In this document: in pieces, positions 1 to 47,350 of the stretch
Layout: every line of letters begins with the position of its first letter
How positions within the stretch are numbered: position 1 is the first letter of the stretch
NCBI GenBank assembly: GCA_022072055.1
Contig: JAJVIK010000015.1
Location: 1-64,000 of the forward strand
DNA length: 64,000 bases
Reading direction: 5' to 3'
DNA from: a bacterium
GTDB taxonomy: Bacteria; Hinthialibacterota; Hinthialibacteria; OLB16
Made by a program: the position numbers and the translations under genes
Notes under the pieces: generated by a model
Databases searched by the model: none
The model's input: only the letters and a program-made list of their open reading frames with translations
What the model was told of the DNA's origin: nothing

Positions 1-286
1 GGGAGGGTTCGGGCACATTCCAGCTCGGCCCTCCCGATGACCCCGCGCTGTCGGCGCCGGCTGGACGGAGCGATTCGGACTGATACACGGGACTCTGCGC
101 GGCGGGGGCTGAAGGGGCGGGGGTCTCATTGGGCATCGGCGAGGTGGCCGGATCCGCGGAGGCGACATCCGCCGAATCCGCTCCGCCCCCAAGACCGAAG
201 CGGTCGCGCACATTGTCAAATGTCGCGCAACCCACAAGGAAGACTCCCAGACACGCGACCACCGAAAAGCGCGCCAAAGTCATCAT
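1..286 (-). CDS. Predicted lipoprotein, N-terminal part (runs off left edge)
   Basis: The reading frame is open from an ATG at 286 to the left edge, giving 95 codons. It begins with two Met codons, a basic N-region and a hydrophobic stretch ending in the lipobox LVGC with Cys20, so a lipid-anchored envelope protein is predicted. After the Cys comes a short charged region and then a Pro/Ala/Ser/Glu-rich low-complexity stretch (residues about 40-90), as in the periplasmic linker of many lipoproteins. A Shine-Dalgarno-like GGGAGG lies about 7 bases upstream of the ATG. It follows the FN3/dockerin-like gene in the same orientation after about 138 bases. The function is not recognisable from this part. 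The signal and lipobox are seen; membrane anchoring is inferred. Confidence 0.75.
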   Translation of the reverse strand, partial: MMTLARFSVVACLGVFLVGCATFDNVRDRFGLGGGADSADVASADPATSPMPNETPAPSAPAAQSPVYQSESLRPAGADSAGSSGGPSWNVPEPS

Positions 287-424
287 CGGAAAGCCTCCCA
301 CTCCAGGAGCATCACCACGGAAAGCAGGGACGTCACCCCGTTTCCCGGAATTCAATTATCGACCAATCCCGAGGGAGATGGAATAGCCCCTCCACGAGAT
401 GAACGGGTAGGAGAGGCAAAAGTC
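287..424. other. Intergenic gap before the lipoprotein gene
   Basis: This short spacer lies between two minus-strand genes. Read on the minus strand, a GATAAT -10-like hexamer sits at 355-360 with no good -35 partner. No terminator hairpin with a T-run is evident downstream of the larger gene. Confidence 0.3.
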
Positions 425-3400
425 TCAGAAATCAGTGATCGGCGGTGGGGTTTGACCGCAAAACGGCTCGAAACCGTAGGCCGGGCCAAGGCACTGGATC
501 CCGAAACGACTCCAATTGCTCGGCTTGGATATGACTCCACTCTCGGAGATCCCCATGATCCGCCAGGAGTGCAAGCCGAAGTAGGAGAGGGTCGGGAGGA
601 GCGCGGAGCCGGGCAGGTCCACTCCGGGTCTCACCTTGGCGATCGCTTGAGCGTGGTCGTAATAATCCGAACCATCCTTACTGAACGAAAGCGAAAAGGT
701 CTCGTGCGCGCTGGTGTCGGCCCAGTGTCCCGGGGCGAGCGGCCAGACCCGCCATTCGTAGTTCCCGCCGCCACCCAAGTTATCCACAATCTGCTGGCCG
801 GTCAGACTGAAGGTGAATTCCTCCGCCGCGGGTTCCCCGGCATCCATGAAAAACTCCGCCACTCGCCCGTTGCTTAGATTAAACAGCACACAGGAGTAGG
901 TGTGCGCGTCCGGAACCGTCTTCCAGGTCAGGTTCAGAACCGGATTCACCCCCGGCAAGGAGACCATCGTCCCACCGATCGGGGAAACCAGATCGGGGGC
1001 GATCAACTTGTCGGCGTAAAGGGCGAACATCCGGTTCTGCGCGTCCATCCACTCCAGCAAATACCGGGTGTAACCGTGGGTCTCCGCCCAACTGACCGAA
1101 AGGCCCCGCTGAGGGGGTGGAATCGTGGGCGGGGTGACTCCAGGGGTTTCGATCAGGTTGAGCGGCTGAACAGGACCGCCGTTGTCCAAAAACGCGCGCC
1201 GGTTTCCCGTCCCCGATTGGACAAAGAGCAGAAGGTCTTTGATGTCCACCTTGCCGTTCAGGTCGAAGTCCACCTCCTGGTTGTACTCGGGGGAACCGTT
1301 CCGCTCTCGCCGCCAACTGTCCTGAAACGCCCCGCCGTCCCCGGCGTCCACCTTGCCATTCCGGTTGACATCCGGGTTCCAGGCCCCAAGCCCGGTCACC
1401 TTGGTCTTGTCCCCGGTAAGGGTGAACTCGCTCCACTCGGGAACTGTCACCGGTCCGTTGAAATACAGACGGAAAAAGGAGTCGCGGATGACATAGTAAG
1501 TCCTCACCCGCCAGCGGAAATCGGGACCGAAGTTCGGGGCGAGCGGGACCTTGACTCGCACCGTAGGCTGAGACTCCTCGCTCCGCTTATGGTAGATGTC
1601 CAGTCCGACAATCGGCCCGCCGCCTACGTTCTGAATCTCCAGACGGTCGAAGACCGCGTAAGGCCCGATTCGAGTGACCCGACTGTACTCGAACTCGACC
1701 TCCCCCGCGTTCACCTGCAGATCCTCTATGGGACTCATGGGGACCGGCAGGTCCGGCTGGTATTCATCGATCTCGATAAAGAAGGTTCGGGTTTCCGACC
1801 AGTAGCCACGGGTGCCGTCCTGCGCGATGGCGCGGACTCGCCAATTATATTCGCCTTGAAGCAATGACTGAGTGGTCAGCTCAAGGACATTGACGATGAA
1901 CCGTTTCACCACCGGAGTGGCGGGTGGGGTGGCCGGTTGAGTCAGCTCCAGCTCATAGACCAATGGGTCGGAGAACTCGTGGTCGACCGCCTCCCAGGTG
2001 AAATGCAGCGGCACGCCGATCACCTCCGGTCCGTAGAAGGTCCCGGTGGGAGGTTCGAGCAGGTTCGGCGGCGGCAGCGGAATGGAAACCGGAATGTCCG
2101 CACGGGTCTGGAAGACTCCCAGGAACACCGGCATGTCGATCCCATTGACTCGATTGTCGGGTTTGGCCGGCCCAAGGTCGGCTAGCGGATCGAACAAGAA
2201 GCTGGATTTGTTCGTTCCCCAGAAGCGAGAGTAGGCGTAGAAATCCCGGATATCGATCACGCCGTCGTCATTGTAGTCGATGTCGATGAATGGCCGGTCG
2301 CACACCGAGCGGATCTCGAAACGGCGCTGCTGGGAAAACGCCCCGCGCGCGCCATCGATGCGCGCCTGGACCCGGAAGTTATAGTTGTCGCTCGGAAAGG
2401 TGAAGAAGAACAGCGCCGAAACATACCCATCCCCGACCACGTCATCCACGATGATGTTGAGTTTTTCTTCGTCCAGCTGCCCCTGGAAGGTGGTCAGAAA
2501 AAGCGTGCTGAGGGTGATCTCCAGGGCGTACGAGGTGGCTCCCTCGACCTCGGTCCAGATCAAGGGAAAGGCGGAGGTCGAGTCCATGCACTGGCGCGAG
2601 AAAGGAAAGACCGGCATAGGTGTCCCGATGTCCCCCTTGGGAACCGTCCCCGCCTCGGCGCTTGAACCGAGGAGCGCCTCCCCCATCCATTTTATCCATC
2701 CGGATTTCTGCTTGGATGGGGCCTTGCCGGACTTGGAGAAATTCAGGACCAGGGAAAAGGGGCGCTGGCCGCTCTGCGATTGGATGAACCCGGGGGCGTC
2801 CGCCAGGATCTCCCAGGTGTAGTTCCCGCTCCCGCCCAAGAGGGAAAGGAACTGGCTCCCGGTCACCGATTGCTCGGTGTTGGTCGTGGGGAAGAAGAAC
2901 TCCGATTGGCTGGTGGTTTCGTTGCGCAGGACCAGTGTGTATTCGGCGGCGTTTGGAACCGGATCCCAAGAAAAGTTGATGAAATCGGCGGGGGTGTTCA
3001 GGGCCAGCATCGCCTGGGGTTCGGGCTGATTGAGCTGCGCGGGCGCGAGCGGCTGGGGGGTGGGTGTCGGACGAGGCGGCGGGAACCGCAGCGGGGCGTT
3101 GTGGAACTGGATCAGGAACGCGATCAGGTCCGCTTGCTCGATGATCCGGTCGGCGGAAACAATGTCGGCGCGCGGGTTCGGGGCATTCTCGCGCATGTAA
3201 TGCCAATTCCGCGCCAGGGTGAACAGGTCAAACTCGTCGATCTTGAGGTCGGGCGTGTCCGGATAGATGTCGGAGGCGAGCGCCCCGACCACGTTGAAAG
3301 TCTCGGAGGCCTCCTCGCCGCGCGAGCCATCCGCCTTGATCGGACGGACCTCATAGCGGTACTCACCGAGCAGGGTGATGTTGCTGACCACCGCCTGTGG

Positions 3401-4033
3401 GCTGACCACATCCAGACGGTAATGCAGCGAGTTGACATTGTCGCCGTTTTCGTTCTTCGAGCGGACCAGTTGGACCTCATACCCCACCGCGTTCCCGACC
3501 GGATTCCAGCGCATGATCAGGGTCTCGAGGTTGATCACCGAGGGGGTGTACTGGACCCCCGAGATGGGCGAGAGACCGTTCGGGGCGGGGAGCGGATTAG
3601 AGCCGATCCCGGGTTTCGGGGGCACCAGGGTGGTGCCGCCGATCAGGCCGAAGGTGAAGACATCGCTGGGCATGCTGGCGGTTTCGCCCTGGTAGGCGAC
3701 CACTTGCCAACTGTACTGGGTCGGGTCGGCTTCGGTCCCCGCCTCCAGCGGGTTGTCCACCGAATCATAGAGGGCGTGGGAGATCGTGGCGGTCACCGTC
3801 CCGACCGGGTTTCCCATGGAAAGACGGGTCACCATCAATTCGTAATGGGTGGCGCCGGGGACATCGGTCCAGTCGAAATCAAAGCCGGAGAGCGGAGCGG
3901 CGGGCACCACCACCTGCTGGCTGGTTCGCGGCTGAAGAAGGCTCGGCTTCTGGTTCTGGAATTGGCCCCAGGAGACACCCTGGAAACACAGGGCAAGTGC
4001 GGCCAGAAAACAGGCCCCGCGGAAAGCGCGCAT
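425..4033 (-). CDS. Large secreted protein of alternating fibronectin-III-like and dockerin-like modules
   Basis: This 1202-aa protein has a signal peptide at residues 1-23 (hydrophobic core, ending SWG before QFQ). At least seven beta-sandwich repeats share a W-x-x-V-x-x-A-x-x-Y start and a Y-x-W-x-V-x-A end, typical of fibronectin type III-like domains. Three two-part dockerin-like (paired EF-hand-like) segments interrupt them at roughly residues 255-320, 590-660 and 890-955; examples are DVNRNGKVDAGD and DFDLNGKVDIKDLL. Dockerin-like modules are usually C-terminal; here they are internal and separate pairs of FN3 modules. I chose the ATG at 4033 because a GAGG lies 9 bases upstream, a good promoter lies further upstream, and the frame extension to 4048 begins with TTG. 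The location is extracellular or cell-surface. The ligand is unknown. Confidence 0.85.
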   Translation of the reverse strand: MRAFRGACFLAALALCFQGVSWGQFQNQKPSLLQPRTSQQVVVPAAPLSGFDFDWTDVPGATHYELMVTRLSMGNPVGTVTATISHALYDSVDNPLEAGTEADPTQYSWQVVAYQGETASMPSDVFTFGLIGGTTLVPPKPGIGSNPLPAPNGLSPISGVQYTPSVINLETLIMRWNPVGNAVGYEVQLVRSKNENGDNVNSLHYRLDVVSPQAVVSNITLLGEYRYEVRPIKADGSRGEEASETFNVVGALASDIYPDTPDLKIDEFDLFTLARNWHYMRENAPNPRADIVSADRIIEQADLIAFLIQFHNAPLRFPPPRPTPTPQPLAPAQLNQPEPQAMLALNTPADFINFSWDPVPNAAEYTLVLRNETTSQSEFFFPTTNTEQSVTGSQFLSLLGGSGNYTWEILADAPGFIQSQSGQRPFSLVLNFSKSGKAPSKQKSGWIKWMGEALLGSSAEAGTVPKGDIGTPMPVFPFSRQCMDSTSAFPLIWTEVEGATSYALEITLSTLFLTTFQGQLDEEKLNIIVDDVVGDGYVSALFFFTFPSDNYNFRVQARIDGARGAFSQQRRFEIRSVCDRPFIDIDYNDDGVIDIRDFYAYSRFWGTNKSSFLFDPLADLGPAKPDNRVNGIDMPVFLGVFQTRADIPVSIPLPPPNLLEPPTGTFYGPEVIGVPLHFTWEAVDHEFSDPLVYELELTQPATPPATPVVKRFIVNVLELTTQSLLQGEYNWRVRAIAQDGTRGYWSETRTFFIEIDEYQPDLPVPMSPIEDLQVNAGEVEFEYSRVTRIGPYAVFDRLEIQNVGGGPIVGLDIYHKRSEESQPTVRVKVPLAPNFGPDFRWRVRTYYVIRDSFFRLYFNGPVTVPEWSEFTLTGDKTKVTGLGAWNPDVNRNGKVDAGDGGAFQDSWRRERNGSPEYNQEVDFDLNGKVDIKDLLLFVQSGTGNRRAFLDNGGPVQPLNLIETPGVTPPTIPPPQRGLSVSWAETHGYTRYLLEWMDAQNRMFALYADKLIAPDLVSPIGGTMVSLPGVNPVLNLTWKTVPDAHTYSCVLFNLSNGRVAEFFMDAGEPAAEEFTFSLTGQQIVDNLGGGGNYEWRVWPLAPGHWADTSAHETFSLSFSKDGSDYYDHAQAIAKVRPGVDLPGSALLPTLSYFGLHSWRIMGISESGVISKPSNWSRFGIQCLGPAYGFEPFCGQTPPPITDF

Positions 4034-4123
4034 GTGCAACGACCTCAAATCCGGACAGACTGATAGATGGCGCGGGTGCTCAGCTCAGGCGATGTCCCCT
4101 AACTCCAATCCCATCCGACAAGC

Positions 4124-4152
4124 ACTATAGCCGTAGTGAAACCAAGTGACAA
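4124..4152 (-). promoter_or_regulatory. Sigma-70-like promoter of the FN3/dockerin-like gene
   Basis: On the minus strand TTGTCA (4147-4152) and TATAGT (4124-4129) are separated by exactly 17 bases. Each hexamer matches 5 of 6 consensus bases. It lies about 90 bases upstream of the ATG at 4033. Confidence 0.6.
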
Positions 4153-4227
4153 GGGAATTTTCGGCTGTCCCCGACCGGACCCGGCCAGCGAGGCCGAAGC
4201 CTCAACTCCGTGCCGCGCGATGCCACC

Positions 4228-4372
4228 GAGCCGCGACCAACCGTGCCGCGACCGTCCGAGCCGCGACCGTAAGGGAGCGGTCCTTTGCCTCCACCCGCTT
4301 GCTCACGCGCGCGGTACGGACAACTTCTCCCTCTCCCGCTCGCGGGAGAGGGCCGGGGTGAGGGTCCTCTCG
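4228..4372. repeat. REP-like palindromic repeats in an intergenic gap
   Basis: The gap between the FN3 gene and the next gene's stop holds two dispersed-repeat-like units. The first (4228-4283) has three copies of GCCGCGACC followed by a GACCG / CGGTC mini-hairpin. The second is an 11-bp perfect stem, CCCTCTCCCGC (4329-4339) with GCGGGAGAGGG (4342-4352), followed by a GGGGTGAGGGT tail. From general familiarity, palindromes of this type occur as multicopy REP or MITE-like elements in many bacteria. Copy number in this genome cannot be seen here. The second hairpin could also act as a terminator for the gene ending at 4373, but it has no clear T-run. Confidence 0.55.
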
Positions 4373-5734
4373 CTACGGCCCGCTCACCTTCCGCCAATCC
4401 AAAATCAGCAGCAGCAAATCCTCCGTGTCCACCTTGCCGCTCTGGTTGATGTCCGAGGCGGGGTTCATGGTGGGAGTGGGGAGTAGGGTTTCGGTGGGGG
4501 TTGGCGTCGGAACCGGCGGTTGAAACTCATACGCCCCCATGTCGTACTCATCCCCGGTTCCATCGCGCCCGAGTCCAGCCACATCCGCCGGACGCGGGTT
4601 GCCGTCGAGGTCATCGCTGGGACCGGAGGTTCCCGCCGTGTCGATGCAGGGGGAGCCGGGTTGAAGGTGGAAGTTTCCGATGGTAGCGTCAATGAAGAGC
4701 GGGTCGTCACTGATGTTGCCGATGCCGGTGTAGCCGCCCTGGATTGCTGAGTGTGCAATTTCTGGCTGACTCAAGGAAATCGAAAGAAGGCTGCTCGAAC
4801 CCCACAGAATACAGTTATCGAAAACCGGTGCAGATCGATCAATAACAACCTCGGCGGCATCTCCCACAATGGTGCAGTTGGTGAAAATCGCAGACTCATT
4901 TTCAGTTACCCAGATTTGATCCTCAATATCGGCCTCATTTCCAAAGATAACGCAATTCGTTAGCACGCACTCCTTATTGCCGATGTATATGCCTCCTGTT
5001 CCAGACGCATCACCAAACTCAGCGACATTGTTACTGATTGTACAATTCGTAATAACCGCTGGCGAGTCTGACAGTACCACCCCTCCTCCATTCGTCGCAT
5101 GATTCCCACTGATGTCGCAGTTCACCAGCGTTATATTCGAATCCTCGACTTTGAGTCCACCCCCGCTGCGATCGGTTCGGTTATTATTGATCACACAGTT
5201 TACAAATTCGACTGTAGCGTTGCGGATCAAACCACCACCTCCATCGGTAACTGAGTCGTTGTTCGCAATTGTACAATTGAAGAGGCGTGCCCTTCCAGAT
5301 AGGATTGAGAAACCCTTTAAGGGACCCTTCTCGAACCGCAACCCATCGATTTCAGCTTCTCCCATGACCACAAGTACGGGAAGATCTATCCCAGACCCGT
5401 CAACCAACACAGGATGCTTACTCGCATCGCGGTGGTCTCTTTCATCATCAGTTTCATTTCCAGAAAAGCCACCCAATAGCACCTCCCTCGTCTCTTCAAC
5501 CCAGATGTATTCTTTGTATATTCCCTCCTTAATCCAGATTTCGTCGGTGCCACTCGATACCGCCACCGCATCCGATACTTGCTGGAAAGCACTACCCCAG
5601 GTCGATCCGTCACTCCCATTCCCGTCTGGTGACACCCGAATAATTCTACAATCCGCTACGCCACAAGGACGGAAGAATAACAGTAACCATATAAGGTATA
5701 AGAACAAAGAACTGGGCTTGGTTCGAGGCTTCAT
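4373..5734 (-). CDS. Secreted parallel beta-helix protein with dockerin-like tail (cassette copy B)
   Basis: This 453-aa protein has an N-terminal signal peptide (about residues 1-28). The motif RVSPDGNGSDG with a following DGxT-W-x-x-A-F introduces a right-handed parallel beta-helix of short N-x-x-I/V repeats such as NCTIxNN and GGGxxxxD. It then shows a DLDGNPRP...YDMGAYEF signature, known from choice-of-anchor Q type sequences. The C-terminus is a Pro/Thr linker and a single dockerin-like half, DINQSGKVDTEDLLLLI. It starts 20 bases after the stop of the upstream partner, with CAGGAG as ribosome-binding site, so the two are probably co-transcribed. It is paralogous to the gene at 7195-8604, with nearly identical DNA over the last ~300 bases and a diverged helix region. 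A role in binding or cutting polysaccharide at the cell surface is possible but not shown. Confidence 0.85.
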   Translation of the reverse strand: MKPRTKPSSLFLYLIWLLLFFRPCGVADCRIIRVSPDGNGSDGSTWGSAFQQVSDAVAVSSGTDEIWIKEGIYKEYIWVEETREVLLGGFSGNETDDERDHRDASKHPVLVDGSGIDLPVLVVMGEAEIDGLRFEKGPLKGFSILSGRARLFNCTIANNDSVTDGGGGLIRNATVEFVNCVINNNRTDRSGGGLKVEDSNITLVNCDISGNHATNGGGVVLSDSPAVITNCTISNNVAEFGDASGTGGIYIGNKECVLTNCVIFGNEADIEDQIWVTENESAIFTNCTIVGDAAEVVIDRSAPVFDNCILWGSSSLLSISLSQPEIAHSAIQGGYTGIGNISDDPLFIDATIGNFHLQPGSPCIDTAGTSGPSDDLDGNPRPADVAGLGRDGTGDEYDMGAYEFQPPVPTPTPTETLLPTPTMNPASDINQSGKVDTEDLLLLILDWRKVSGP

Positions 5735-5753
5735 GTCGTACGCTCCTGAGGAC

Positions 5754-6962
5754 CTATGGACCGACTTGTCCCTTGACCGTCATATTGTCAATCGTGATCG
5801 TGTCTTCGGAAGAATCCAGCTGAGCTCGAATCCAGATTCCGAAATACTTGGGGGTCTCCGGCGGGTCACCTTCCTTCTGGATGTCTGTATCATCCTGCAT
5901 CGAAAAGTCGAGGCGTACGCGCTGTCCCCATGCGTATCCTTGACTCTTGAGGACTGATCGAGGAATGACCTTGGCGACTCTCCATCGGTCAATGCCATCG
6001 GAATGTCCGAGCCCGTCATCGAATCGCGGTGTGCGATCTGCCTTGTACAACCCGAAGTCTGTCTCGTTGTGGTAATTGTCCGTGAAGAAGACCGCCACGA
6101 GCTCCTCGATCAACCAGCAATCAACACAACTCTTGGCATCAATAAGGTTCTGGCAGTTTCCCCACGGCAGGTATGAGGCTGCTTTGTAGCCAGCCAACGA
6201 CTCCCGGCCTGCTTTGTAATCCACACCCTGCGGTCGGTATCCGTGCGGCTCTGAACCCCCAAGGTCCGCCTCTAGGTCGAATTCCACGACCAAGTTCTTG
6301 TAATTCCCCGTATCGATCTTTCTCCACAGCTCCCCGCCCTCGAAGTTGTGGATGTCGCAGAACGGATTGCACTCGTGGTTATCGTGGACACACGTGTCGG
6401 GATCGGGAGGCACTGGGGTCGGGGTCGTCGAGGCGTCATTCGCTGGGAGTGGAGTCGGAGTCGGATTGCACGGAATCTGGTCGCTGGCCACGTTGTCACA
6501 GCAAGCATCATTGGCGCAGCACTTGACATACGAGCAAGCTCCCACCGCGCCGGTCCCGGTGATGACCACCTTACCTGAGGAATGCGTGATCAAATTCCCA
6601 GGATCGTTGGTCACATCGACGGACTTGAAGGAGAAGCGCTTCCACGGGGCCGGACTTCCGGAAAACGGATCCGAACTAAAATCCCAACTCTCAATCAGCG
6701 TGTAATCATCCGCCTCGTTCACGTCCGGCGTCTGGGCGTCATCCGTTCCGACCAGTATCGGAATGAACACATAGGCGCTCTCCACCAGGCCACTCTGACC
6801 CAGGCCGGAGAACTGCTCTCCCAGCTTGCCTTCCTCGTAGAGCACCGAGAGACGATGGTAGCGGCTCTCAGAGGCCAAGGTGGCCTTGTCCCCATCCTGA
6901 GCCGGAAGGCTGTCGAGGGTGAACACCACCTCGTTTCCGTTCACCGAGTAACTCGATTCCAT
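5754..6962 (-). CDS. Secreted-type Cys-containing protein with Pro/Thr linker, N-terminus uncertain (cassette copy B)
   Basis: The ORF (402 aa from this ATG) is open further upstream to 7130, but that extension begins with TTG, is basic and low in beta-type pattern, and has no signal peptide. A TTG at 6983 directly behind GGGAGGGAGG is an alternative start. The first ~200 residues form an unrecognised beta-rich domain. A Cys cluster (KCCANDACCD) and a Pro/Thr linker lead into a second domain beginning DTCVHDNHECNPFCD and ending in DTITIDNMTVKG, which resembles jelly-roll or concanavalin-like folds. The second domain is shared with the shorter paralogue at 8607-9248. The missing signal peptide suggests the 5' end was lost or rearranged. 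The function is unknown. Confidence 0.65.
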   Translation of the reverse strand: MESSYSVNGNEVVFTLDSLPAQDGDKATLASESRYHRLSVLYEEGKLGEQFSGLGQSGLVESAYVFIPILVGTDDAQTPDVNEADDYTLIESWDFSSDPFSGSPAPWKRFSFKSVDVTNDPGNLITHSSGKVVITGTGAVGACSYVKCCANDACCDNVASDQIPCNPTPTPLPANDASTTPTPVPPDPDTCVHDNHECNPFCDIHNFEGGELWRKIDTGNYKNLVVEFDLEADLGGSEPHGYRPQGVDYKAGRESLAGYKAASYLPWGNCQNLIDAKSCVDCWLIEELVAVFFTDNYHNETDFGLYKADRTPRFDDGLGHSDGIDRWRVAKVIPRSVLKSQGYAWGQRVRLDFSMQDDTDIQKEGDPPETPKYFGIWIRAQLDSSEDTITIDNMTVKGQVGP

Positions 6963-7194
6963 CTCGATTCCGTCAAGTAACAAGTTCCTCCCTCCCGACA
7001 CCTCGGACCGCTTCCCATTTGGAAGCAGCGCTCGTTTTCGGAGGGGCGCGGTCCCGCGCGCCCGGACACGATGGAACGTGTCCCTCCAGGCGCCAAACGA
7101 CGTGCGGTCTTCATGGATTCCCGTTTCCAAGGGAATGACGCTTTCCGTTTTCCATATCCTTCCGGTCCTTCCGACCCCTCCGTGGTTCAGAAGT
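6963..7194. other. Spacer between the two duplicated cassettes
   Basis: This stretch lies between the two cassette copies on the minus strand. It contains an imperfect inverted repeat around 7110-7140 (CCGTTTCCAAGGGAA type) and a purine-rich GGGAGGGAGG (minus strand) near 6986-6995. It is the presumed junction of the duplication. No separate gene is supported. Confidence 0.35.
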
Positions 7195-8604
7195 TCATGG
7201 CGTGGCCCCTCGGGCCCAGTCGGCGATCAACAGCAGCAGGTCCTCCGTGTCCACCTTGCCGCTCTGATTGATGTCCGAGGCGGGGTTCATGGTGGGAGTG
7301 GGCAGCAAAGTCTCCGTGGGGGTTGGTGTCGGAACCGGCGGTTGAAACTCATACGCCCCCATGTCGTACTCATCCCCGGTTCCTTCACGCCCCAGACCGA
7401 ACACATCCGCCGGGCGCGGGTTGCCGTCGAGGTCATCGCTCGGACCGGAGGTTCCCGCCGTGTCGATGCAGGGGGAGCCGGGTTGAAGGTGGAAGTTTCC
7501 GATGGTAGCGTCAATAAAGAGGGGGTCATCGCTGATGTTGCCCTCGCCGGGGTAGCCGCCTTGGATACAGGAGGAGGTGATCAGCGCCTGCCCCAAGGAG
7601 ATCGACAGCAGGTTGCTTGATCCCCAAAGGATGCAGTTCTCAAAGATTGGCGTACATCGATCAATGAGCAATTCAGCCGGGCCGCCAACGATCGTGCAGT
7701 TTGTCAATGCGGCGTATTCGCATTGGTTTATATTCATTTGTGCCTCAGTGTCCGCTTTGTTGTCGGAAATAAGGCAGTTCACGAATATGCAATTCTTGGT
7801 CCCAACGGCAATACCGCCGACCGCCGAGGAATCCCCGTATTCTGCCACATTGTTGCTGATCGTGCAGTTGGTGATATATCCAAATGACCGAGCTAACACA
7901 ATTCCACCACCGTTGGTCGCATGATTGTGACTGATATCACATCCTCTTAGAGTCACATTGGAATCCTCAATGTATAGACCGCCGCCGCTGGTAATCGACC
8001 GGTTGCCTCGGATCACGCAATTCACGAACTCCGCGCTCCCGTCTCGCACTAGCATCCCGCCCACGTATCGGTTCTCGTTCTCTTTGATTATGCAATTCCT
8101 GAAGGTCGCACTCGCACCAATAATGGCGCCCCCATTGGCCTTCCGACCCGTCGTGAACGTGATTCCGTCAATCACCGCATCACGAAGGCAGTATATCGCC
8201 GAATATGTAAGACCCTGTGGATTCATCTGGTGCTCCGAATTGACTACGGTTGGGTTAAGCGTCCAGTTCCTGAGATGCCTTTCTTGATCTGTTTCCGTAC
8301 CCACAAACCCACCAAGAATTGTGATTGTATTAGTCACAACCTCAACATGGTCACCGTAAACTGCACCTTTGACCCACAGTTCATCGTCGTAATCCGCAAC
8401 GGCAAGTGCATCGGAGATTCTCTTGAAGGCGGTAGACCAAGTCACTCCGTCACTTCCGTTTCCATCCGGCGATACGCGTAGAATCCGAGAGTCCGCTGGC
8501 AAACATGCAATGGCAATGCTCGTGAAAAGAACCACACGCCTCAGTGCAGAACCACAAACTCCGAGGATAAGCCGTTGGCCGTCAACGATCGTGTCACAAA
8601 TCAT
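7195..8604 (-). CDS. Secreted parallel beta-helix protein with dockerin-like tail (cassette copy A)
   Basis: This 469-aa paralogue of the gene at 4373-5734 has the same architecture: signal peptide (about residues 1-38, ending near ADS), RVSPDGNGSDG entry motif, beta-helix coils with NCTIxNN and GGG repeats, choice-of-anchor-Q-like DLDGNPRP...YDMGAYEF, a PTPTPTETLLPTPT linker, and a dockerin-like half DINQSGKVDTEDLLLLI. Its ATG lies 2 bases after the TAG stop of the upstream gene, indicating translational coupling. The 3' ~300 bases are almost identical in DNA to the other copy, while the helix region is clearly diverged and less GC-rich. It probably acts outside the cell. Confidence 0.85.
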   Translation of the reverse strand: MICDTIVDGQRLILGVCGSALRRVVLFTSIAIACLPADSRILRVSPDGNGSDGVTWSTAFKRISDALAVADYDDELWVKGAVYGDHVEVVTNTITILGGFVGTETDQERHLRNWTLNPTVVNSEHQMNPQGLTYSAIYCLRDAVIDGITFTTGRKANGGAIIGASATFRNCIIKENENRYVGGMLVRDGSAEFVNCVIRGNRSITSGGGLYIEDSNVTLRGCDISHNHATNGGGIVLARSFGYITNCTISNNVAEYGDSSAVGGIAVGTKNCIFVNCLISDNKADTEAQMNINQCEYAALTNCTIVGGPAELLIDRCTPIFENCILWGSSNLLSISLGQALITSSCIQGGYPGEGNISDDPLFIDATIGNFHLQPGSPCIDTAGTSGPSDDLDGNPRPADVFGLGREGTGDEYDMGAYEFQPPVPTPTPTETLLPTPTMNPASDINQSGKVDTEDLLLLIADWARGATP

Positions 8605-8606
8605 GG

Positions 8607-9248
8607 CTATTGCCCCTTGACTGTAAGGTTATCAATGGTAATCACATCCGTGTCGGAATCAACCTGAGCGCGAATCCAGATCCCAAAGCTGGAGTTGTCA
8701 TCTGTATCGTCCTGCATCGAGAAATCCAACCGAACACGCCGACCTAAATCATAGCCCTGGCTCTGAAGGACGGATCGAGGGATAATCTTTGCCACCTTAC
8801 ATCGGTCGATTCCGTCAGCTTGGAGGGGATTGCCAGATGAGAATCGTGGCTGCCGACCGTCGTACAATTCTTGTCCATAGTCCGTCGTGAAGAAGACGGC
8901 CACGAGCTCCTCGATCAGCCAACAGTCCACGCAGCTTTGGAACCCAGTAAGGACGTTTTGACAGTTGCTCCATGGCAAGTATGACACATAGTCCTGGCGA
9001 TATTCGGGGTCGCGGATTTCATACCCCCAGGTCGATCCGCGCGGTCTGTAACCGTGGGGAATCTCGCTCAGCCCCTCGGCCTTCAGGTCAAACTCCACCA
9101 CCACGTTCTTGAATCCAGTGGTATCGATCTTCCTCCACAGCTCCCCGCCCTCGAAGTTGTGGATGTCGCAGAACGGATTGCACTCGTGGTTATCGTGGAC
9201 ACACGTGTCGGGATCGGGAGGCACTGGGGTCGGGCTTGGAGCGGCCAT
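8607..9248 (-). CDS. Short paralogue of the 5754-6962 protein, no signal peptide (cassette copy A)
   Basis: The ATG at 9248 is preceded by GAGGAGG about 8 bases away, so this start is favoured over the open frame reaching 9386. The 213-aa product begins directly in the Pro-rich linker (PTPVPPDPD) of the longer paralogue. It retains only the second domain: DTCVHDNHECNPFCD at the start, a WLIEELVAVFF core, and ITIDNLTVKG at the end. No signal peptide is present although the partner gene encodes an exported protein. The region 6340-6417 of the other copy is identical to the start of this gene. It looks like a copy truncated during duplication that kept or acquired a ribosome-binding site. Whether it is exported or functional is unknown. 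Confidence 0.7.
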   Translation of the reverse strand: MAAPSPTPVPPDPDTCVHDNHECNPFCDIHNFEGGELWRKIDTTGFKNVVVEFDLKAEGLSEIPHGYRPRGSTWGYEIRDPEYRQDYVSYLPWSNCQNVLTGFQSCVDCWLIEELVAVFFTTDYGQELYDGRQPRFSSGNPLQADGIDRCKVAKIIPRSVLQSQGYDLGRRVRLDFSMQDDTDDNSSFGIWIRAQVDSDTDVITIDNLTVKGQ

Positions 9249-9297
9249 TAGACAGCCTCCTCGGCCTGGGGTGTCGGAGTGGCGGATTCGATGGAGA

Positions 9298-9306
9298 AGT
9301 ATAGCA
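9298..9306 (-). promoter_or_regulatory. Extended -10 promoter candidate for cassette copy A
   Basis: On the minus strand TGC precedes TATACT, an extended -10 arrangement about 50 bases upstream of the ATG at 9248. No good -35 is seen. The adjacent divergent gene starts at 9435. Confidence 0.35.
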
Positions 9307-9434
9307 AATATCGGGGAGGTGGACAGGTAGTTTCTGATGCGCGCGGCTCGGACTGGCAGGCAGGATTCCTGTTCCACGGTCCCCACGGCTTACGCCACTA
9401 TCCATCGCGCGCCCGTCAAGCTTAAAGTCTCCCG

Positions 9435-10547
9435 ATGCCCAAAGTTCTTCACCTCTATAAGGATGTCTTTCCCCCGATCTATGGCGGCATCGAGGTGGTC
9501 CTCGGAAAGCTCGCCGCGCACCAGGTCCGGCGCGGTTGGGAGGTTGCGGTCGCGGTCTCGGGTCCGGTCGATCCAGAGTGGGGTAGGGAAAGCGGGGTTG
9601 AACTCCTCCCTGTTGGGGAGTGGGGCCGGATTCTGTCTAACCCGCTTGCTCCGGGGTTTCTCAAGGTCCTTCGCGAGACCCGCTATGATGTCCTGCACCT
9701 CCACCTGCCCTGTCCAACCGCGGTGATCGCGGCGCTGTATGCCGCGAAAAGAGGGACCCCCTGGTTCGTGTCGCACCAGAGCGACATTGTCCGCCAACGA
9801 CTCACCGGCGCGCTCTACTCCCCCTTCGAGTCGAAGTTCTTCTCGCGGGTCACGGAGATCTTTGTCTCCTCCCCGAACCTACTTGAAAGTTCCAGGGCGC
9901 TCTCCCATTTCAAAGGCAAGTGCAAGGTGGTTCCGCTGGGGATCTCACCGGAAGAGCCATCCGAGGCGGACCGCGGTGAGGCCGCCCGAATCCGCGCCGA
10001 GCATGACGGCAAGCCGATCATCCTGTTTGTGGGCAGGTTCCGCTGGTACAAGGGGCTGCATGTTCTGATCGAAGCCATGAACCAGGTGGATGGGGTCTTG
10101 CTTGTGGTCGGGTCCGGCACGGAACGGCAGGAACGGCTCGTACGCGCGCAAGCGGCCGCGATTCGCCATCCCCAGCGAATCCGTTTCCTCGGAACAGTCA
10201 GGGACCTCACCCCGCTGCTTGCGGCCACGGATGTCTTTTGTCTCCCATCCACCCATCGAGCCGAGGCGTTTGGGTATGTGCTGCTGGAGGCCTTCCGAGC
10301 GGGGGTTCCGGCGGTCACCACGGAGCTCGGCACGGGCACCTCGTTTGTGAACCAGGATGGGGTCACCGGCTTTGTGGTCCCCCCCAAGGATCCCGACAAG
10401 CTCGCAGGGGCGATCTGCCGGATGCTCGCCGACCCGAGTTTCCGGGCGCGATTCGGCGCGAACGCCCGAAGGAGAGTGGTGAACGAGTTTGGGATCGAGA
10501 AGATGGTGGATTCGATCCTGGAAAGCTACGAAATGGCGTTGGGGTAA
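9435..10547 (+). CDS. GT4-family glycosyltransferase
   Basis: This 370-aa protein has the GT-B fold layout of family 4 transferases. The N-terminal half has PPIYGGIEVVLGKLA, a glycine-rich acceptor-side loop, and VLHLHLP. The C-terminal half has ILFVGRFRWYKGLHVLIEA, a phosphate-binding region, and the E-x7-E nucleotide-sugar motif in AEAFGYVLLEA followed by a G-PAVTTELGTG loop. Members transfer a sugar from a nucleotide donor to lipid or polysaccharide acceptors on the cytoplasmic face of the membrane. The length is normal. The ribosome-binding site is weak. It stands alone between two minus-strand genes, so the acceptor and pathway cannot be inferred. Confidence 0.9.
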   Translation: MPKVLHLYKDVFPPIYGGIEVVLGKLAAHQVRRGWEVAVAVSGPVDPEWGRESGVELLPVGEWGRILSNPLAPGFLKVLRETRYDVLHLHLPCPTAVIAALYAAKRGTPWFVSHQSDIVRQRLTGALYSPFESKFFSRVTEIFVSSPNLLESSRALSHFKGKCKVVPLGISPEEPSEADRGEAARIRAEHDGKPIILFVGRFRWYKGLHVLIEAMNQVDGVLLVVGSGTERQERLVRAQAAAIRHPQRIRFLGTVRDLTPLLAATDVFCLPSTHRAEAFGYVLLEAFRAGVPAVTTELGTGTSFVNQDGVTGFVVPPKDPDKLAGAICRMLADPSFRARFGANARRRVVNEFGIEKMVDSILESYEMALG

Positions 10548-12218: not shown

Positions 12219-15200
12219 ATGAGAAAAGCGTGTCTGTTCACGGCGGTTCTTTGCGCGTTTCTTGGGGGGGCGTCCGCGCAGTCGCCCCAACTTCTGAACA
12301 ACTTCGATTCCGGAACAGAAGGGTGGTTCCAAAACTTCGGCACAATCAACATCGTCTCGGCGTCGGGCGGGTTGCTCACCTGGGTGAGTCCGGGCGGCAC
12401 AAGCGGCGCCATCTCCGACAGCTTCAACAACACGAACGCGCTTTTCCAGCCGAATGCGGGAGGAGTGGACCTGACCGGCATGTCCAGCCTGAATTTCCAC
12501 TTGGGCTACACCGGGTCCGATCCCACGATTGATGTGCAGTTCTTTGTCCAGGCCAGCCCAAGCAGCACCTATGTGGCCTTGGGTCCCGACCAGACCGTAA
12601 GCGCGGGAGCCAAGAACCTGATTTTCAGCGCCCCGCTCTCCGGGCTCACCCCGGAGCAGATCGCCTATATCCGCACCTGGGGGATCAACATCCGCTCACA
12701 TTCCGCCGACGCCAATTTCAGCCTCGGCTTTGTATCGTCCTCCGGGACTCCTCTTTTTTCCCGCCAGTTTGCAACCTTTGAACCGGGGACCCCGGATGGT
12801 GAGTTCAACAGCGCCATTGTGAATTTTGATGGAGCGGGGGTCCAAGGGAACTCCGGCCAGAACAATTCGGGCCTTTCGGTTGTGGGCGGCAGCCTGCAGT
12901 GGTTGGACCTCGGCGGCGGCCCGGGAGGGGCAATTTCGATCTTCAACGGATTCAACACCGGCTTTAACGGGCGCCCCACCGACCTCAGCAATTACGACTA
13001 CATCCACTGGGCGATTTCCGGCGACGAGGGCGTGGTCAAGACCATCAGCCCGGTGAATCTCCAGTTCTTCCTTCAAACCACCAACGGCTTCACCTACTCC
13101 GTTTTGGGACCCGACCAGTCCTTCACCCCGGATGGGACGCTCTATTCCTTTTACGCCCCGCTGGGGAATGTGGGAAACACGGATTTCGTGCAGACCATCG
13201 GGATGAATGTGGCCGGGCACCCGCAGGACATCACCTTCAGCGTGGACTTTATCGAAGCTGGCCAAGCGCTCCCGTACTCGTTTAACCTCCCCCCTTCCTC
13301 CTCGGGAACCGTTTCGAGGCTCCAACTCAATGGGTCAAACCTCGAGCTCATCCAAGAGCCCACGGGGACCCCACTTTTCAGCATTCCGGCGGCCCTTGTG
13401 AACCCGATCACCATCACCGGAGTTGCGGATCAGGATGACATGCTGATCATCGATTACAGCAACGCCGCGTTCGGTAATATCAGCGTGAATTTCCTCGGTG
13501 GCGATGGCGGCAACGACAGCCTCGAGTTCATCGGCGCGGGCTACCCGGCGGCCGAATACCATGTCAGCGACGGCATGAGCGGCAGCGGCGGCATATTGCT
13601 GAACGGTGGCACCATCGTTTTCACCGGGCTTGAACCGGTGACCATGAGCGGCATCGGCGTAATCGACTTCGAGACCCCCGCCAACGAGGACGACATCCTG
13701 GTGGATAGCCCCGGCGCCGGCCAGAACCGGGTGTCCGGAACCTCCAACGGCGGCGTTCCTTTTGAGGCGTTGACATTCTACGACGTGACCACCTTCATCC
13801 TCGACACGGGTTTCAATGATGTCACCGCGCCGAATGATGTGGTGGTGATTGATCCGGCCGGTCTGGTCGCCTCCAACCTGGTGGATTTCCAGATCCTCAC
13901 GGGGGAAGGCGATGACATCGTGAACGGCCAAGGGGCTATCGCGACCTCCGCCACCTTAACCGTGAACGCCGGTCCTGGCGTGGATAGCGTCACCGGCACC
14001 TTTGACGCCGACATCATTCTGGGCGGGCCGGGCAACGACACCCTGGTCGGAAGCCGTGGGAACGACCAGATCTTCGGCGAGGAAGACAACGACACCCTGA
14101 TCTGGAATAACGGCGACAACACCGACCTGATGGAGGGTGGACCCGGCGACGACGTGGTCCTGGTGAACGGCGCCCCGGCGGCCGGGGACCACTTCAAGAT
14201 GCGTCCCAATGGCATGCGATTCGACTTTGATCGGATCAACCTGATTCCCTTCACCCTCGACATCGGCACTTCGGAGACCTTGGATGTCAACGGCCTTGGC
14301 GGCGACGACATCTTTGACGTGACCGCCTCCGCCGATTTGTTCATCGACCTGGATGGCTTCGGCCATGTCACCGGCGACACCCTCAACGTGGACGCCCAAG
14401 GTCAGTCCGTCATGGTCTCCAAGGGGGTCTTCCCATTGCCGAACGGGACCATCCAGGTCGACTCCCTCCAGCCCATCGTTTATTCCAACATGGAGGATGT
14501 GAACATCCTCAACCAGCTCGCTCCGACCGAGACCGAAACCTCGGTTCCGACACAGACCGAGACCCCACTTCCGCCCACCGCGACGGAAACCCCCGTGCCG
14601 CCGACCGCGACTTCCACCGAAACGGAGATTCCCACGAGCACCGAAACCGAGGTCCCCTCGCCCACCCCGACCAACACCTTCGGTCCGGTGGTCCAAGCGG
14701 CGACGCTCACCATTTCCTGCTCCTGCACCATCGGAATCTATGGCGGACCGGATCCGTTCCATATCCGGATCGTAGGCGGGACTCTGCCGGAGGCCGATCC
14801 GCCTGCGGTTTCCTGCGAGGTCTTCAACTCGCTGGTCGACTGCCAGATCGATTGCTCCGCCGAGACCGGATTCGGTTGCGATGTGGTTCTCGGGAATGTC
14901 ACCCGCCAGATCATCAACTGCATCAACACCCAGGCGGCGGGAGTGGTCGTCGGAGTGACCGTCGCGGGCGACCCGGGTGTCATCGGGATTCAGAGCACCC
15001 AGCCGTTCTACATCGGGCTGTGCTCGCAGGAGCTGAACCTCGACTGCAACAACGAGGTTTGCTACCCGCTCAGCACTCGCCCGCTCTACAACATCTGCGA
15101 TGGCGATCCGTTCAACCAGAGCGATGACGACCTGACCTGCGGGCTCGGCTTCGAGGTGGAGAACGTGGTCGAGGGAACTCCGACACCCTCGGCGACACCC

Positions 15201-16979
15201 GCGACTCCGACCGAAACCCCGACCGAACCGCCCTTCATGTGCGTCCAGGCGGCCAACGTGGTCTTCGAGTGCGCCGGAGAGATTTCTCCGAACGCGGAGC
15301 CGATCATCCTCAAGATCGCTCAAGGGGTTTCCACCGCGACACAGTGCGCGATCAGCCGCTGCGACGAGACCCCCTTCGTGGAGTGCTTCATCGATCTGGC
15401 GGCGCTGGCGGATCCCGATCCCCTCGATCAGACCCCGTTTGATTGCGACGAGGCCCTGAGCTCGATTGTGAGTCAGGTCCTGGCCTGCATCAGCGCGCAG
15501 TCGGGAGGTTCCCTGGTGGCCTCGACCGATGGCCAGCCGCTCGGAACCATCTATATCCAAGGCGAATCCTCGTTCCACTGCTGCCTGTGCTCGAACGAGA
15601 TTCCGGGACTGAACTGCGCCGCGGCGGGCTTCCGCTGGCCGCTCGATAACTGCCCGCTCTACAACCTGGGCGATGGCGTCAGCGGCAACGAGGAAACCGA
15701 CTTCAGCGGCTTTGTGAACGGCATCGGATTGGTTTGCCTCGATGCCCTTTGCCCGGCCCCGACCTCCACGCCGACTCCGACGGAGACGGTTCCCACGGAG
15801 ACCCCGACGGTCACCGAGTCGCCGACCATCACCCCGACGCCGGGGTGTGAGAGCGGCCTGTACATGCTGATCTCCACAGGCGAAATCGAGCGCGTGGGCC
15901 ATCCGTTCTTGATCAATGGCGAGTTCAACTTCCCGATTCCTGACTTCGCCAAGGATCTGGAGCGCGGCCTGTCGAACTCGGGTCCGCCCACGACCGATTT
16001 GGTGGTGCTGGATGGCTCCGGCATCGCCCATTTCGTGGAGCATCCCGTGGATGATGTGGCCCCGGATGTGTCCGCGGTGTTCCCGCCGGACATGAACTTC
16101 CCAACCGGGCGCGCGGTGGACCTCCAGATGACCACCACCGGCGATGGCTTCTGGGTGCTGACCGACTTCGGCGGCATCTATCGCGCCGGAGACGCTCGCC
16201 AGGGAGGTGACCCGGTCCTCGTGCCCGGAACCGACATGATCGGACTGGGCGCGGATATCCCCTTCGGGGCGATGCGCCGTCCCGGCTTCCCGCCGGACGC
16301 CACCCTGAGGGCCGTGGCCATGATCGCGCTTGACGCCGCCGCGCCGCTCGATGACCCCGAAGGCTTCATCGTGATGGACAGCCAAGGCGGTCACTATCAG
16401 TTCGGCCCGGATGGCGGTCTGGTCGCGCCCGGAACCTTCTCCGGTTCGCCGGTCAATTCGCCCGAGCGATTGCTCGAACCTGACCCGAACCAGGGCGGCT
16501 ATGTCTGGCCGTTCTTCCCGGGCATCGACATCGCGCGCGACGCCGAGCTCTTCCCGACAGCCAAGAACGGCATCGTGGTCTTCGATGGCTGGGGCGGCAT
16601 CCACCCGATTCCGGTCAACGACCCGGCCAACCCGGTGTTCTTCACCCGCAACGAAGACCCGATGAATCCGGGAACCCTGATTACCACGGTCGGCATGCCG
16701 TACATCGTGGCCGGGTTCGACGATCCGGAGACGCTCGGACAGGATGAGAGCGATCCGGTCCAGTACGGCGCGGACGTGTACTCGATCTTCACCGACTTCG
16801 AGTTCTCGGCGGGCTGCGAAATGGGTTTCTACACGCTCGACAAGTTCGGCGGCGTGTTCGTCTTCGGTGAGGCCAGGAACGCGCCGGACAGCATCTTCCC
16901 GGCCTGGGCATTGCCCTACATCGCCACCCAGAACGCGGTCGCGATCGAGCTCTTCGGGTTCACCGAAGCGGGGCCTTGA
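12219..16979 (+). CDS. Giant secreted mosaic protein with RTX-like calcium repeats and duplicated Cys-rich modules
   Basis: This 1586-aa protein has a clear signal peptide (residues 1-21, cleavage after ASA). Two related beta-rich modules occupy about 22-190 and 195-355 (FDSGTEGWFQ and FEPGTPDGEF starts). A long beta region follows, with hemolysin-type nonapeptide repeats near residues 590-640 (GGPGNDTLVG, GNDQIFGEEDNDTL). A Thr/Pro/Glu linker (about 770-825) leads to two homologous Cys-rich modules, at about 831-985 and 1007-1180, each with PLYN near its end. A C-terminal ~375-residue part repeats aromatic-Gly motifs (DxxGGxYxxG), suggesting a propeller-like fold. A type I secretion signal is not needed given the Sec signal. 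No dockerin-like tail is visible, unlike its large neighbours. A 15-bp terminator follows the stop. Confidence 0.85.
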   Translation: MRKACLFTAVLCAFLGGASAQSPQLLNNFDSGTEGWFQNFGTINIVSASGGLLTWVSPGGTSGAISDSFNNTNALFQPNAGGVDLTGMSSLNFHLGYTGSDPTIDVQFFVQASPSSTYVALGPDQTVSAGAKNLIFSAPLSGLTPEQIAYIRTWGINIRSHSADANFSLGFVSSSGTPLFSRQFATFEPGTPDGEFNSAIVNFDGAGVQGNSGQNNSGLSVVGGSLQWLDLGGGPGGAISIFNGFNTGFNGRPTDLSNYDYIHWAISGDEGVVKTISPVNLQFFLQTTNGFTYSVLGPDQSFTPDGTLYSFYAPLGNVGNTDFVQTIGMNVAGHPQDITFSVDFIEAGQALPYSFNLPPSSSGTVSRLQLNGSNLELIQEPTGTPLFSIPAALVNPITITGVADQDDMLIIDYSNAAFGNISVNFLGGDGGNDSLEFIGAGYPAAEYHVSDGMSGSGGILLNGGTIVFTGLEPVTMSGIGVIDFETPANEDDILVDSPGAGQNRVSGTSNGGVPFEALTFYDVTTFILDTGFNDVTAPNDVVVIDPAGLVASNLVDFQILTGEGDDIVNGQGAIATSATLTVNAGPGVDSVTGTFDADIILGGPGNDTLVGSRGNDQIFGEEDNDTLIWNNGDNTDLMEGGPGDDVVLVNGAPAAGDHFKMRPNGMRFDFDRINLIPFTLDIGTSETLDVNGLGGDDIFDVTASADLFIDLDGFGHVTGDTLNVDAQGQSVMVSKGVFPLPNGTIQVDSLQPIVYSNMEDVNILNQLAPTETETSVPTQTETPLPPTATETPVPPTATSTETEIPTSTETEVPSPTPTNTFGPVVQAATLTISCSCTIGIYGGPDPFHIRIVGGTLPEADPPAVSCEVFNSLVDCQIDCSAETGFGCDVVLGNVTRQIINCINTQAAGVVVGVTVAGDPGVIGIQSTQPFYIGLCSQELNLDCNNEVCYPLSTRPLYNICDGDPFNQSDDDLTCGLGFEVENVVEGTPTPSATPATPTETPTEPPFMCVQAANVVFECAGEISPNAEPIILKIAQGVSTATQCAISRCDETPFVECFIDLAALADPDPLDQTPFDCDEALSSIVSQVLACISAQSGGSLVASTDGQPLGTIYIQGESSFHCCLCSNEIPGLNCAAAGFRWPLDNCPLYNLGDGVSGNEETDFSGFVNGIGLVCLDALCPAPTSTPTPTETVPTETPTVTESPTITPTPGCESGLYMLISTGEIERVGHPFLINGEFNFPIPDFAKDLERGLSNSGPPTTDLVVLDGSGIAHFVEHPVDDVAPDVSAVFPPDMNFPTGRAVDLQMTTTGDGFWVLTDFGGIYRAGDARQGGDPVLVPGTDMIGLGADIPFGAMRRPGFPPDATLRAVAMIALDAAAPLDDPEGFIVMDSQGGHYQFGPDGGLVAPGTFSGSPVNSPERLLEPDPNQGGYVWPFFPGIDIARDAELFPTAKNGIVVFDGWGGIHPIPVNDPANPVFFTRNEDPMNPGTLITTVGMPYIVAGFDDPETLGQDESDPVQYGADVYSIFTDFEFSAGCEMGFYTLDKFGGVFVFGEARNAPDSIFPAWALPYIATQNAVAIELFGFTEAGP

Positions 16980-47041: not shown

Positions 47042-47350
47042 GGCGCTGGGCTCTCCCTCAAGAAGGTGTCAGGAATCCCGCGAGGGTAGTCCCGCCGGCC
47101 TGGGAATCAAAGTCCGCCCGGTGGTTTCCATTCCCTAAAAACCAACCGCGATTCCCCGCAAGGGGGCAAAATAGAGGTGGCATCGCCCGGCCCAGTATGG
47201 TATTCTTCTACTATATTGCAGGTTCTTTTTCGGTTCCGCCCCACGTTCATTCCTCATCCTCGTTCCGCCCAGTGATTCCCTCGTGATTGCATCCCCCGCG
47301 GACCGCCGCTTTGGGGACAGGTCGCTCGCTTGAGTCAAAGGAGGAGCATT
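47042..47350. other. Divergent intergenic region before the C25 peptidase gene
   Basis: About 309 bases with an AT-richer core at 47196-47220 (TATATT and, on the other strand, TATAGT hexamers) that may hold divergent promoters. A strong AAAGGAGGAG ribosome-binding site precedes the ATG at 47351. No RNA gene or repeat is seen. Confidence 0.35.

What the first reader, a model, noticed from the sequence alone, without database searches (positions are those of the whole stretch)
4373..9248. Duplicated two-gene cassette with conserved tail and diverged helix core
Two copies of a pair [Cys-containing secreted protein + beta-helix protein with dockerin-like tail] lie in tandem. The 3' ~300 bases (4373-4740 and 7195-7560) are nearly identical, and a linker stretch (6340-6417, 9155-9232) is identical, yet the beta-helix cores (about 4760-5700, 7570-8560) have diverged and are lower in GC. 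The pattern suggests gene conversion or recombination that keeps the anchor and linker while diversifying the binding region.
Basis: partly seen in the sequence, partly recalled or inferred. Interest (0 to 1): 0.65.

Follow-up and report, generated by a model that had tools for sequence, protein, structure and literature searches.

The report
Gene conversion between paired surface-protein genes
Two neighbouring copies of a secreted beta-helix gene (each next to a shortened piece of a giant secreted protein) are anciently different in their bodies but nearly identical in their anchoring tails, because the tails have been copied recently between gene copies; this is an ordinary kind of gene conversion, here seen repeatedly in one poorly known bacterial genome.

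Summary
Two tandem cassettes share a nearly identical tail (4404-4703 and 7226-7525, 93%) and an identical 102-bp linker (6322-6423 and 9133-9234). The stretch between them is anciently diverged. A codon test separates history from selection. In the core, conserved residues use identical codons no more often than chance (53 of 161, expected 57). In the tail (83 of 105, expected 49) and the linker (36 of 38, expected 24) they do so far more often. So tail and linker are recent copies, not merely constrained protein.

The tail is a mosaic of at least four loci, with a breakpoint near 4418-4442. The same pattern of old core and young 3' end recurs in a second gene set of this genome (C19/C5) and in one pair of a same-family genome.

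The 'Cys protein' is not a complete secreted gene: its only full-length homologue is the C-terminal end of a roughly 2,500-residue ORF, and both window copies are 5'-truncated. Contig ends sharing exactly 127 bp imply further, unassembled copies. Ordinary mechanism, new example.

The parts
4373..5734 (-). beta-helix gene 1 (453 aa): signal-peptide-like N-terminus, right-handed beta-helix core, choice-of-anchor Q domain, PT-rich linker, single dockerin-like calcium loop at the C-terminus
5754..7130 (-). Cys-domain ORF 1: 5'-truncated C-terminal part of a giant protein; the upstream end of the ORF runs into sequence without a match in the giant protein
7195..8604 (-). beta-helix gene 2 (469 aa), same architecture
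8607..9248 (-). Cys-domain ORF 2 (213 aa), more severely 5'-truncated; ATG fused directly to the linker (MAAPSPTPVPPDPDTC...)
4404..4703 (-). young tail tract, copy 1 (93% to 7226-7525; 98% at 4600-4699), covering choice-of-anchor Q plus PT linker plus dockerin-like loop
7226..7525 (-). young tail tract, copy 2
6322..6423 (-). identical 102-bp linker tract, copy 1
9133..9234 (-). identical 102-bp linker tract, copy 2
4886..5734 (-). old, synonymously saturated helix core, copy 1
7708..8604 (-). old, synonymously saturated helix core, copy 2
4418..4442 (-). tail breakpoint: upstream of it copy 1 groups with window copy 2; downstream it groups with the copies at C4 end and C20
4238..4365 (-). 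dispersed palindromic repeat starting about 8 nt after the stop codon of gene 1; also next to the genes at C4 end, C20 and C1
9251..9346 (-). R element: extended -10-like (TGCTATACT) plus GGAGG plus ATG leader, three copies in the genome, each 5' of a family member

Best explanation
Shown: the two cassettes are old paralogues. Their Cys regions (after the linker) and helix cores diverged until synonymous sites were saturated, while the anchoring tail and a 102-bp linker are much younger and must have been copied between loci. The tail is a patchwork of at least four loci. Inferred: the copying is ordinary RecA-type ectopic homologous recombination (gene conversion). It acts most on the anchor module because protein-level constraint keeps its DNA similar enough to pair, and the diverged cores fall below that similarity, so they escape and keep drifting. 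The helix gene probably encodes a secreted or surface carbohydrate-binding or carbohydrate-active protein held by its C-terminal module. The truncated Cys ORFs are remnants, or reduced versions, of the C-terminal domain of a giant secreted protein. No programmed switching is needed.
For: Codon test: core 53/161 identical codons, expected 57.3; tail 83/105, expected 48.9 (0 of 5000 shuffles); linker 36/38, expected 23.9; rest of Cys domain 41/100, expected 40.2. Sliding dS falls from saturated to 0.1-0.6 at the start of the choice-of-anchor Q domain. Four-locus site patterns: 46 sites group window 1 with window 2, 10 group window 1 with C4 end, and these are spatially clustered (0 of 20000 runs shuffles, breakpoint 4418-4442). 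Over 4439-4373 copy 1 is 90-91% identical to C4 end and C20 but 71% to its neighbour; past the stop codon the values are 93-94% against 40%. Recurrence: C19a/C19b share the last 587 bp at 93.9% with cores at 46% amino-acid identity; the C5 gene shares the start of that tract at 93-96%; L082/L085 in the same-family genome show the same step. Controls: tails of the OFTM149 pairs L084/L098 and L083/L108 are about 80% identical in protein over the last 40 codons, yet codon identity is at chance, so constraint alone does not give the window signal.
Against: The direction and date of each transfer cannot be set from one genome. Young flanks around an old middle could also come from replacing the middle. 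The strongly matching 3' flank includes a dispersed repeat that may be similar for other reasons. The runs and codon tests treat sites as independent. There is no strain-level evidence of exchange. The core of C19a/C19b has somewhat more identical codons than chance (z 3.6), though that bin includes the start of the tract.
Confidence: 0.75

Rival explanations
1. Recent tandem duplication followed by replacement of the middle: a divergent paralogue recombined into one copy using the linker and the tail as homology arms, giving a new core between young flanks (core swapping).
For: Same gene order with young tracts on both sides of an old middle. Contigs C3 and C22 share exactly 127 bp at the Cys 3' end, and the two ends of C4 share exactly 127 bp inside the helix tail. 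The simplest joining is one identical core segment sitting between different flanks at two places.
Against: The young tracts are also sharply bounded on their outer sides, and the tail changes age along its length (98% to 71%) with other loci involved. One duplication plus one swap predicts uniform age. The joining of C3/C22 to C4 is inferred from contig ends, not seen.
Confidence: 0.17
2. No recombination: the tail and linker are simply under stronger purifying selection.
For: Tail proteins are conserved across the family and across genomes.
Against: Synonymous codons match far beyond chance in the window tail and linker but not in comparably conserved tails elsewhere; site patterns conflict within the tail.
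Confidence: 0.04
3. A programmed cassette-variation system with a constant anchor, linker and leader, and exchangeable cores held partly as silent truncated copies.
For: R leader only at family members; truncated Cys ORFs; a further copy reduced to about the last 43 codons; a tyrosine-recombinase-like ORF on C22 a few kb away (recognised by eye).
Against: Cores are saturated, not freshly shuffled; tract edges are not fixed sites; the recombinase-like ORF is separated by two unrelated genes; no population variants.
Confidence: 0.04

Closest known systems
Helicobacter pylori bab (babA/babB/babC) outer-membrane adhesin paralogues (PMC4552749)
   Same: Surface-protein paralogues with nearly identical ends and a divergent middle; gene conversion between loci yields chimaeras.
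   Different: The bab genes have strain-level evidence, CT-repeat phase variation and a known receptor; here there is one genome, a conserved 3' end plus an internal linker in the neighbouring gene, and a beta-helix core.
Mycobacterium PE_PGRS17/PE_PGRS18 gene pair (PMC1762029)
   Same: Adjacent duplicated genes of a multigene family exchanging a segment by gene conversion.
   Different: That exchange is followed across strains and between similar genes; here cores are saturated and only short tracts are young.
choice-of-anchor Q domain proteins (NCBIfam NF041518)
   Same: The window tails score 37.8 and 37.6 bits against a cut-off of 25; beta-helix upstream, anchoring C-terminus downstream.
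   Different: The final anchor is a single dockerin-like loop; what it binds is unknown.
Dockerin type I (PF00404)
   Same: Calcium-loop motif DxNxxGxVDxxDLL near the C-terminus after a PT-rich linker.
   Different: Only one half-repeat; the window helix proteins do not match the Pfam model.
Right-handed beta-helix polysaccharide lyases and hydrolases (Pel9A, RbmB, GH28, GH87)
   Same: Fold match of the predicted model (best E 4e-6).
   Different: Low model confidence (mean pLDDT 65), TM-scores 0.2-0.4 on the query, no catalytic residues assigned.

Membership tests
choice-of-anchor Q domain-containing proteins | match to NF041518 above its curated cut-off | tested here: met
   37.8 and 37.6 bits vs 25; model positions 16-58 of 58
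Dockerin type I | two calcium-binding half-repeats, Pfam PF00404 match | tested here: not met
   no PF00404 hit for either window helix protein; the C20 paralogue matches only model positions 3-22 of 57, E 0.18
Cohesin-dockerin (cellulosome-like) systems | cohesin partners encoded in the same genome | tested here: inconclusive
   three marginal cohesin matches at the cut-off (25.3, 25.1 and 24.1 bits); about 50 tail-like motifs at E <= 0.01; binding not testable
Right-handed parallel beta-helix proteins | beta-helix fold | tested here: inconclusive
   PF13229 found in paralogues C1 and C20 but not in the window copies; predicted helix with block-mean pLDDT mostly 70-97 at residues 121-310; Foldseek to beta-helix enzymes
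Gene-converting surface paralogue families (bab-like; a works-like claim) | conserved ends and divergent middle, with the conserved ends young at synonymous sites | tested here: met
Gene-converting surface paralogue families (bab-like; a works-like claim) | exchange observed between strains | not testable with these tools
   one genome per species; no strains held
Programmed antigenic-variation cassettes | expression site plus silent donors, with observed switching | not testable with these tools
   truncated copies seen, but no expression or population data

The most novel reading that the evidence does not exclude
The linker, the anchor tail and the R leader act as homology arms that let whole helix cores (and the adjoining Cys region) be swapped between loci, giving a standing repertoire of surface proteins, possibly selected for as a diversification system in this lineage.
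Probability: 0.08. Interest if true: 0.65.

Novelty: new member of a known kind. Interest (0 to 1): 0.35.

Why it matters
It gives a clear, testable case in an uncultivated lineage where the anchoring end of surface proteins evolves in concert while the exposed body does not. It also warns that short-read assemblies of such genomes break at exactly these tails, hiding further copies. The Cys domain is an orphan: it was found only in this genome among 61 genomes searched by protein, and no relative was confirmed in the species-genome scan.

Tried and rejected
Foreign origin of the low-GC core: rejected as special, since paralogues show the same tendency. The Cys domain as a known family: no Pfam or NCBIfam match; the predicted fold is poor (pLDDT 54) with no significant structural match. 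Relatives of the Cys domain elsewhere: none in 61 genomes by protein, none among 14 class genomes by profile, none confirmed in the genome collection by pattern scan. A sigma-70 consensus promoter upstream of cassette 2: the scan finds none; the R leader was found by repeat comparison instead. An excess of synonymous difference in the core (pS above 0.75) looked odd but is at chance by the codon-shuffle test. The dispersed palindromic repeat as a cassette-specific element: rejected, it occurs at more than 40 places in the genome.

Full report
What is there. The window lies in a 5.86-Mb, 32-contig genome. On the minus strand stand two cassettes in tandem: a Cys-domain ORF followed within about 20 bases by a beta-helix gene. 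Cassette 1 is 7130-5754 then 5734-4373. Cassette 2 is 9248-8607 then 8604-7195. Self-comparison gives a 482-bp tail match at 84% (300 bp of it at 93%), a linker match, and only weak patches between. The tail is 98% identical at 4600-4699, and the linker is identical for 102 bp, 6322-6423 against 9133-9234.

Selection or copying. Similar tails could mean conserved protein or recent copying. Synonymous positions separate the two. Across the core (327 aligned codons) 53 of 161 conserved residues use the same codon, where shuffling predicts 57. In the tail it is 83 of 105 against 49, in the linker 36 of 38 against 24, and in the rest of the Cys domain 41 of 100 against 40. dS falls from saturation to 0.1-0.6 where the choice-of-anchor Q domain begins (domain). 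Two tracts are therefore recent and the rest is ancient. As a control, in the same-family genome (G002, which contains the contigs of the MAG labelled Candidatus Omnitrophota OFTM149), tails that are about 80% identical in protein over the last 40 codons show chance codon identity in the pairs L084/L098 and L083/L108. Constraint alone does not produce the signal.

Mosaic. Two further tails sit at the two ends of contig C4. Sorting sites by which copies agree gives 46 that pair the two window copies and 10 that pair window copy 1 with C4 end. They are strongly clustered (0 of 20000 shuffles), with a break between 4418 and 4442. In the last 67 coding bases copy 1 is 90-91% identical to C4 end and C20 but 71% to its neighbour; beyond the stop codon the values are 93-94% against 40%. 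Part of that flank is a dispersed palindromic repeat, so I lean on the coding sites.

Recurrence. In the same genome C19a and C19b, another tandem pair with a different tail, share their last 587 bp at 93.9% while their cores are 46% identical in protein. The C5 gene shares the start of that tract, and a third tail of this type lies at the end of C19. C15/C7 are near-identical over 1.3 kb but differ at their N-terminal ends. In the relative, L082/L085 show the same step. The pattern is thus a habit of the family, not an accident of one pair.

What the Cys ORF is. Besides the window, the domain occurs only at the ends of contigs C3 and C22. On C3 it is the C-terminus of a roughly 2,500-residue ORF with FG-GAP and beta-helix regions. 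On C22 only about the last 43 codons remain. The window copies keep about 390 and 213 residues. Copy 2 begins at an ATG belonging to a 100-bp leader, R. In C20 this leader precedes a beta-helix gene directly, and on C22 it precedes the Cys remnant. It carries a conserved TGCTATACT and GGAGG; that it is a promoter is inference. So these are 5'-truncated relatives of a giant protein, still open, of unknown use.

Hidden copies. C3 and C22 start with exactly the same 127 bases, and the two ends of C4 share exactly 127 bases inside the helix tail. An exact length of 127 is what a short-read assembler with that k-mer leaves at a branch (my own knowledge). Neither stretch occurs elsewhere in the assembly at full length. 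I infer at least one collapsed segment, probably the helix core between Cys 3' end and tail, present twice and missing from the assembly. This is inference.

Mechanism. The simplest account is ectopic homologous recombination. The anchor module evolves slowly as protein and remains pairable, so conversion keeps refreshing it; cores have drifted beyond pairing. A core replacement between the two conserved flanks is the main rival and cannot be excluded. Programmed switching has no direct support.

Function. The helix genes look like secreted beta-helix proteins. The predicted model matches carbohydrate-active beta-helix enzymes (best E 4e-6, low confidence). The tail ends in one dockerin-like loop. 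About 50 such motifs exist in the genome at E <= 0.01, along with three marginal cohesin-like domains, so a cohesin-type partner is possible but untested.

Known parallels. H. pylori bab genes have nearly identical ends, a divergent middle and conversion chimaeras (PMC4552749). PE_PGRS17/18 show conversion between adjacent duplicates (PMC1762029). The present case works like these.

Noticed in passing
window 9251-9346 (-); C20:36918-37022; C22:381-477 (-): A 100-bp leader with an extended -10-like motif, Shine-Dalgarno and ATG occurs three times in the genome, each time directly 5' of a member of this gene family.
   Followed up: partly
C19 end (L032) and C5 start (L029): A second tandem array of beta-helix genes with homogenised tails, broken by contig ends; probably three or more copies.
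   Followed up: partly
window 4238-4365 and more than 40 other places: Dispersed palindromic repeat (CTCTCCCGCGAGCGGGAGAG type), in several cases just after a stop codon.
   Followed up: partly
L027 (C3) 8-7507: About 2,500-residue ORF combining FG-GAP repeats, beta-helix regions, a possible glycosidase-like region and the orphan Cys domain.
   Followed up: partly
L028 (C22) 3330-4508; L027 (C3) 8988-9866: ORFs that look like a tyrosine recombinase and an ArdC-like antirestriction protein near the broken cassette copies (recognised by eye, not tested).
   Followed up: no
window 47330-53038, 53079-58004, 12219-16979, 425-4048: Several giant secreted-looking proteins with PT-rich linkers or dockerin-like motifs; the one at 425-4048 matches the dockerin model.
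   Followed up: no
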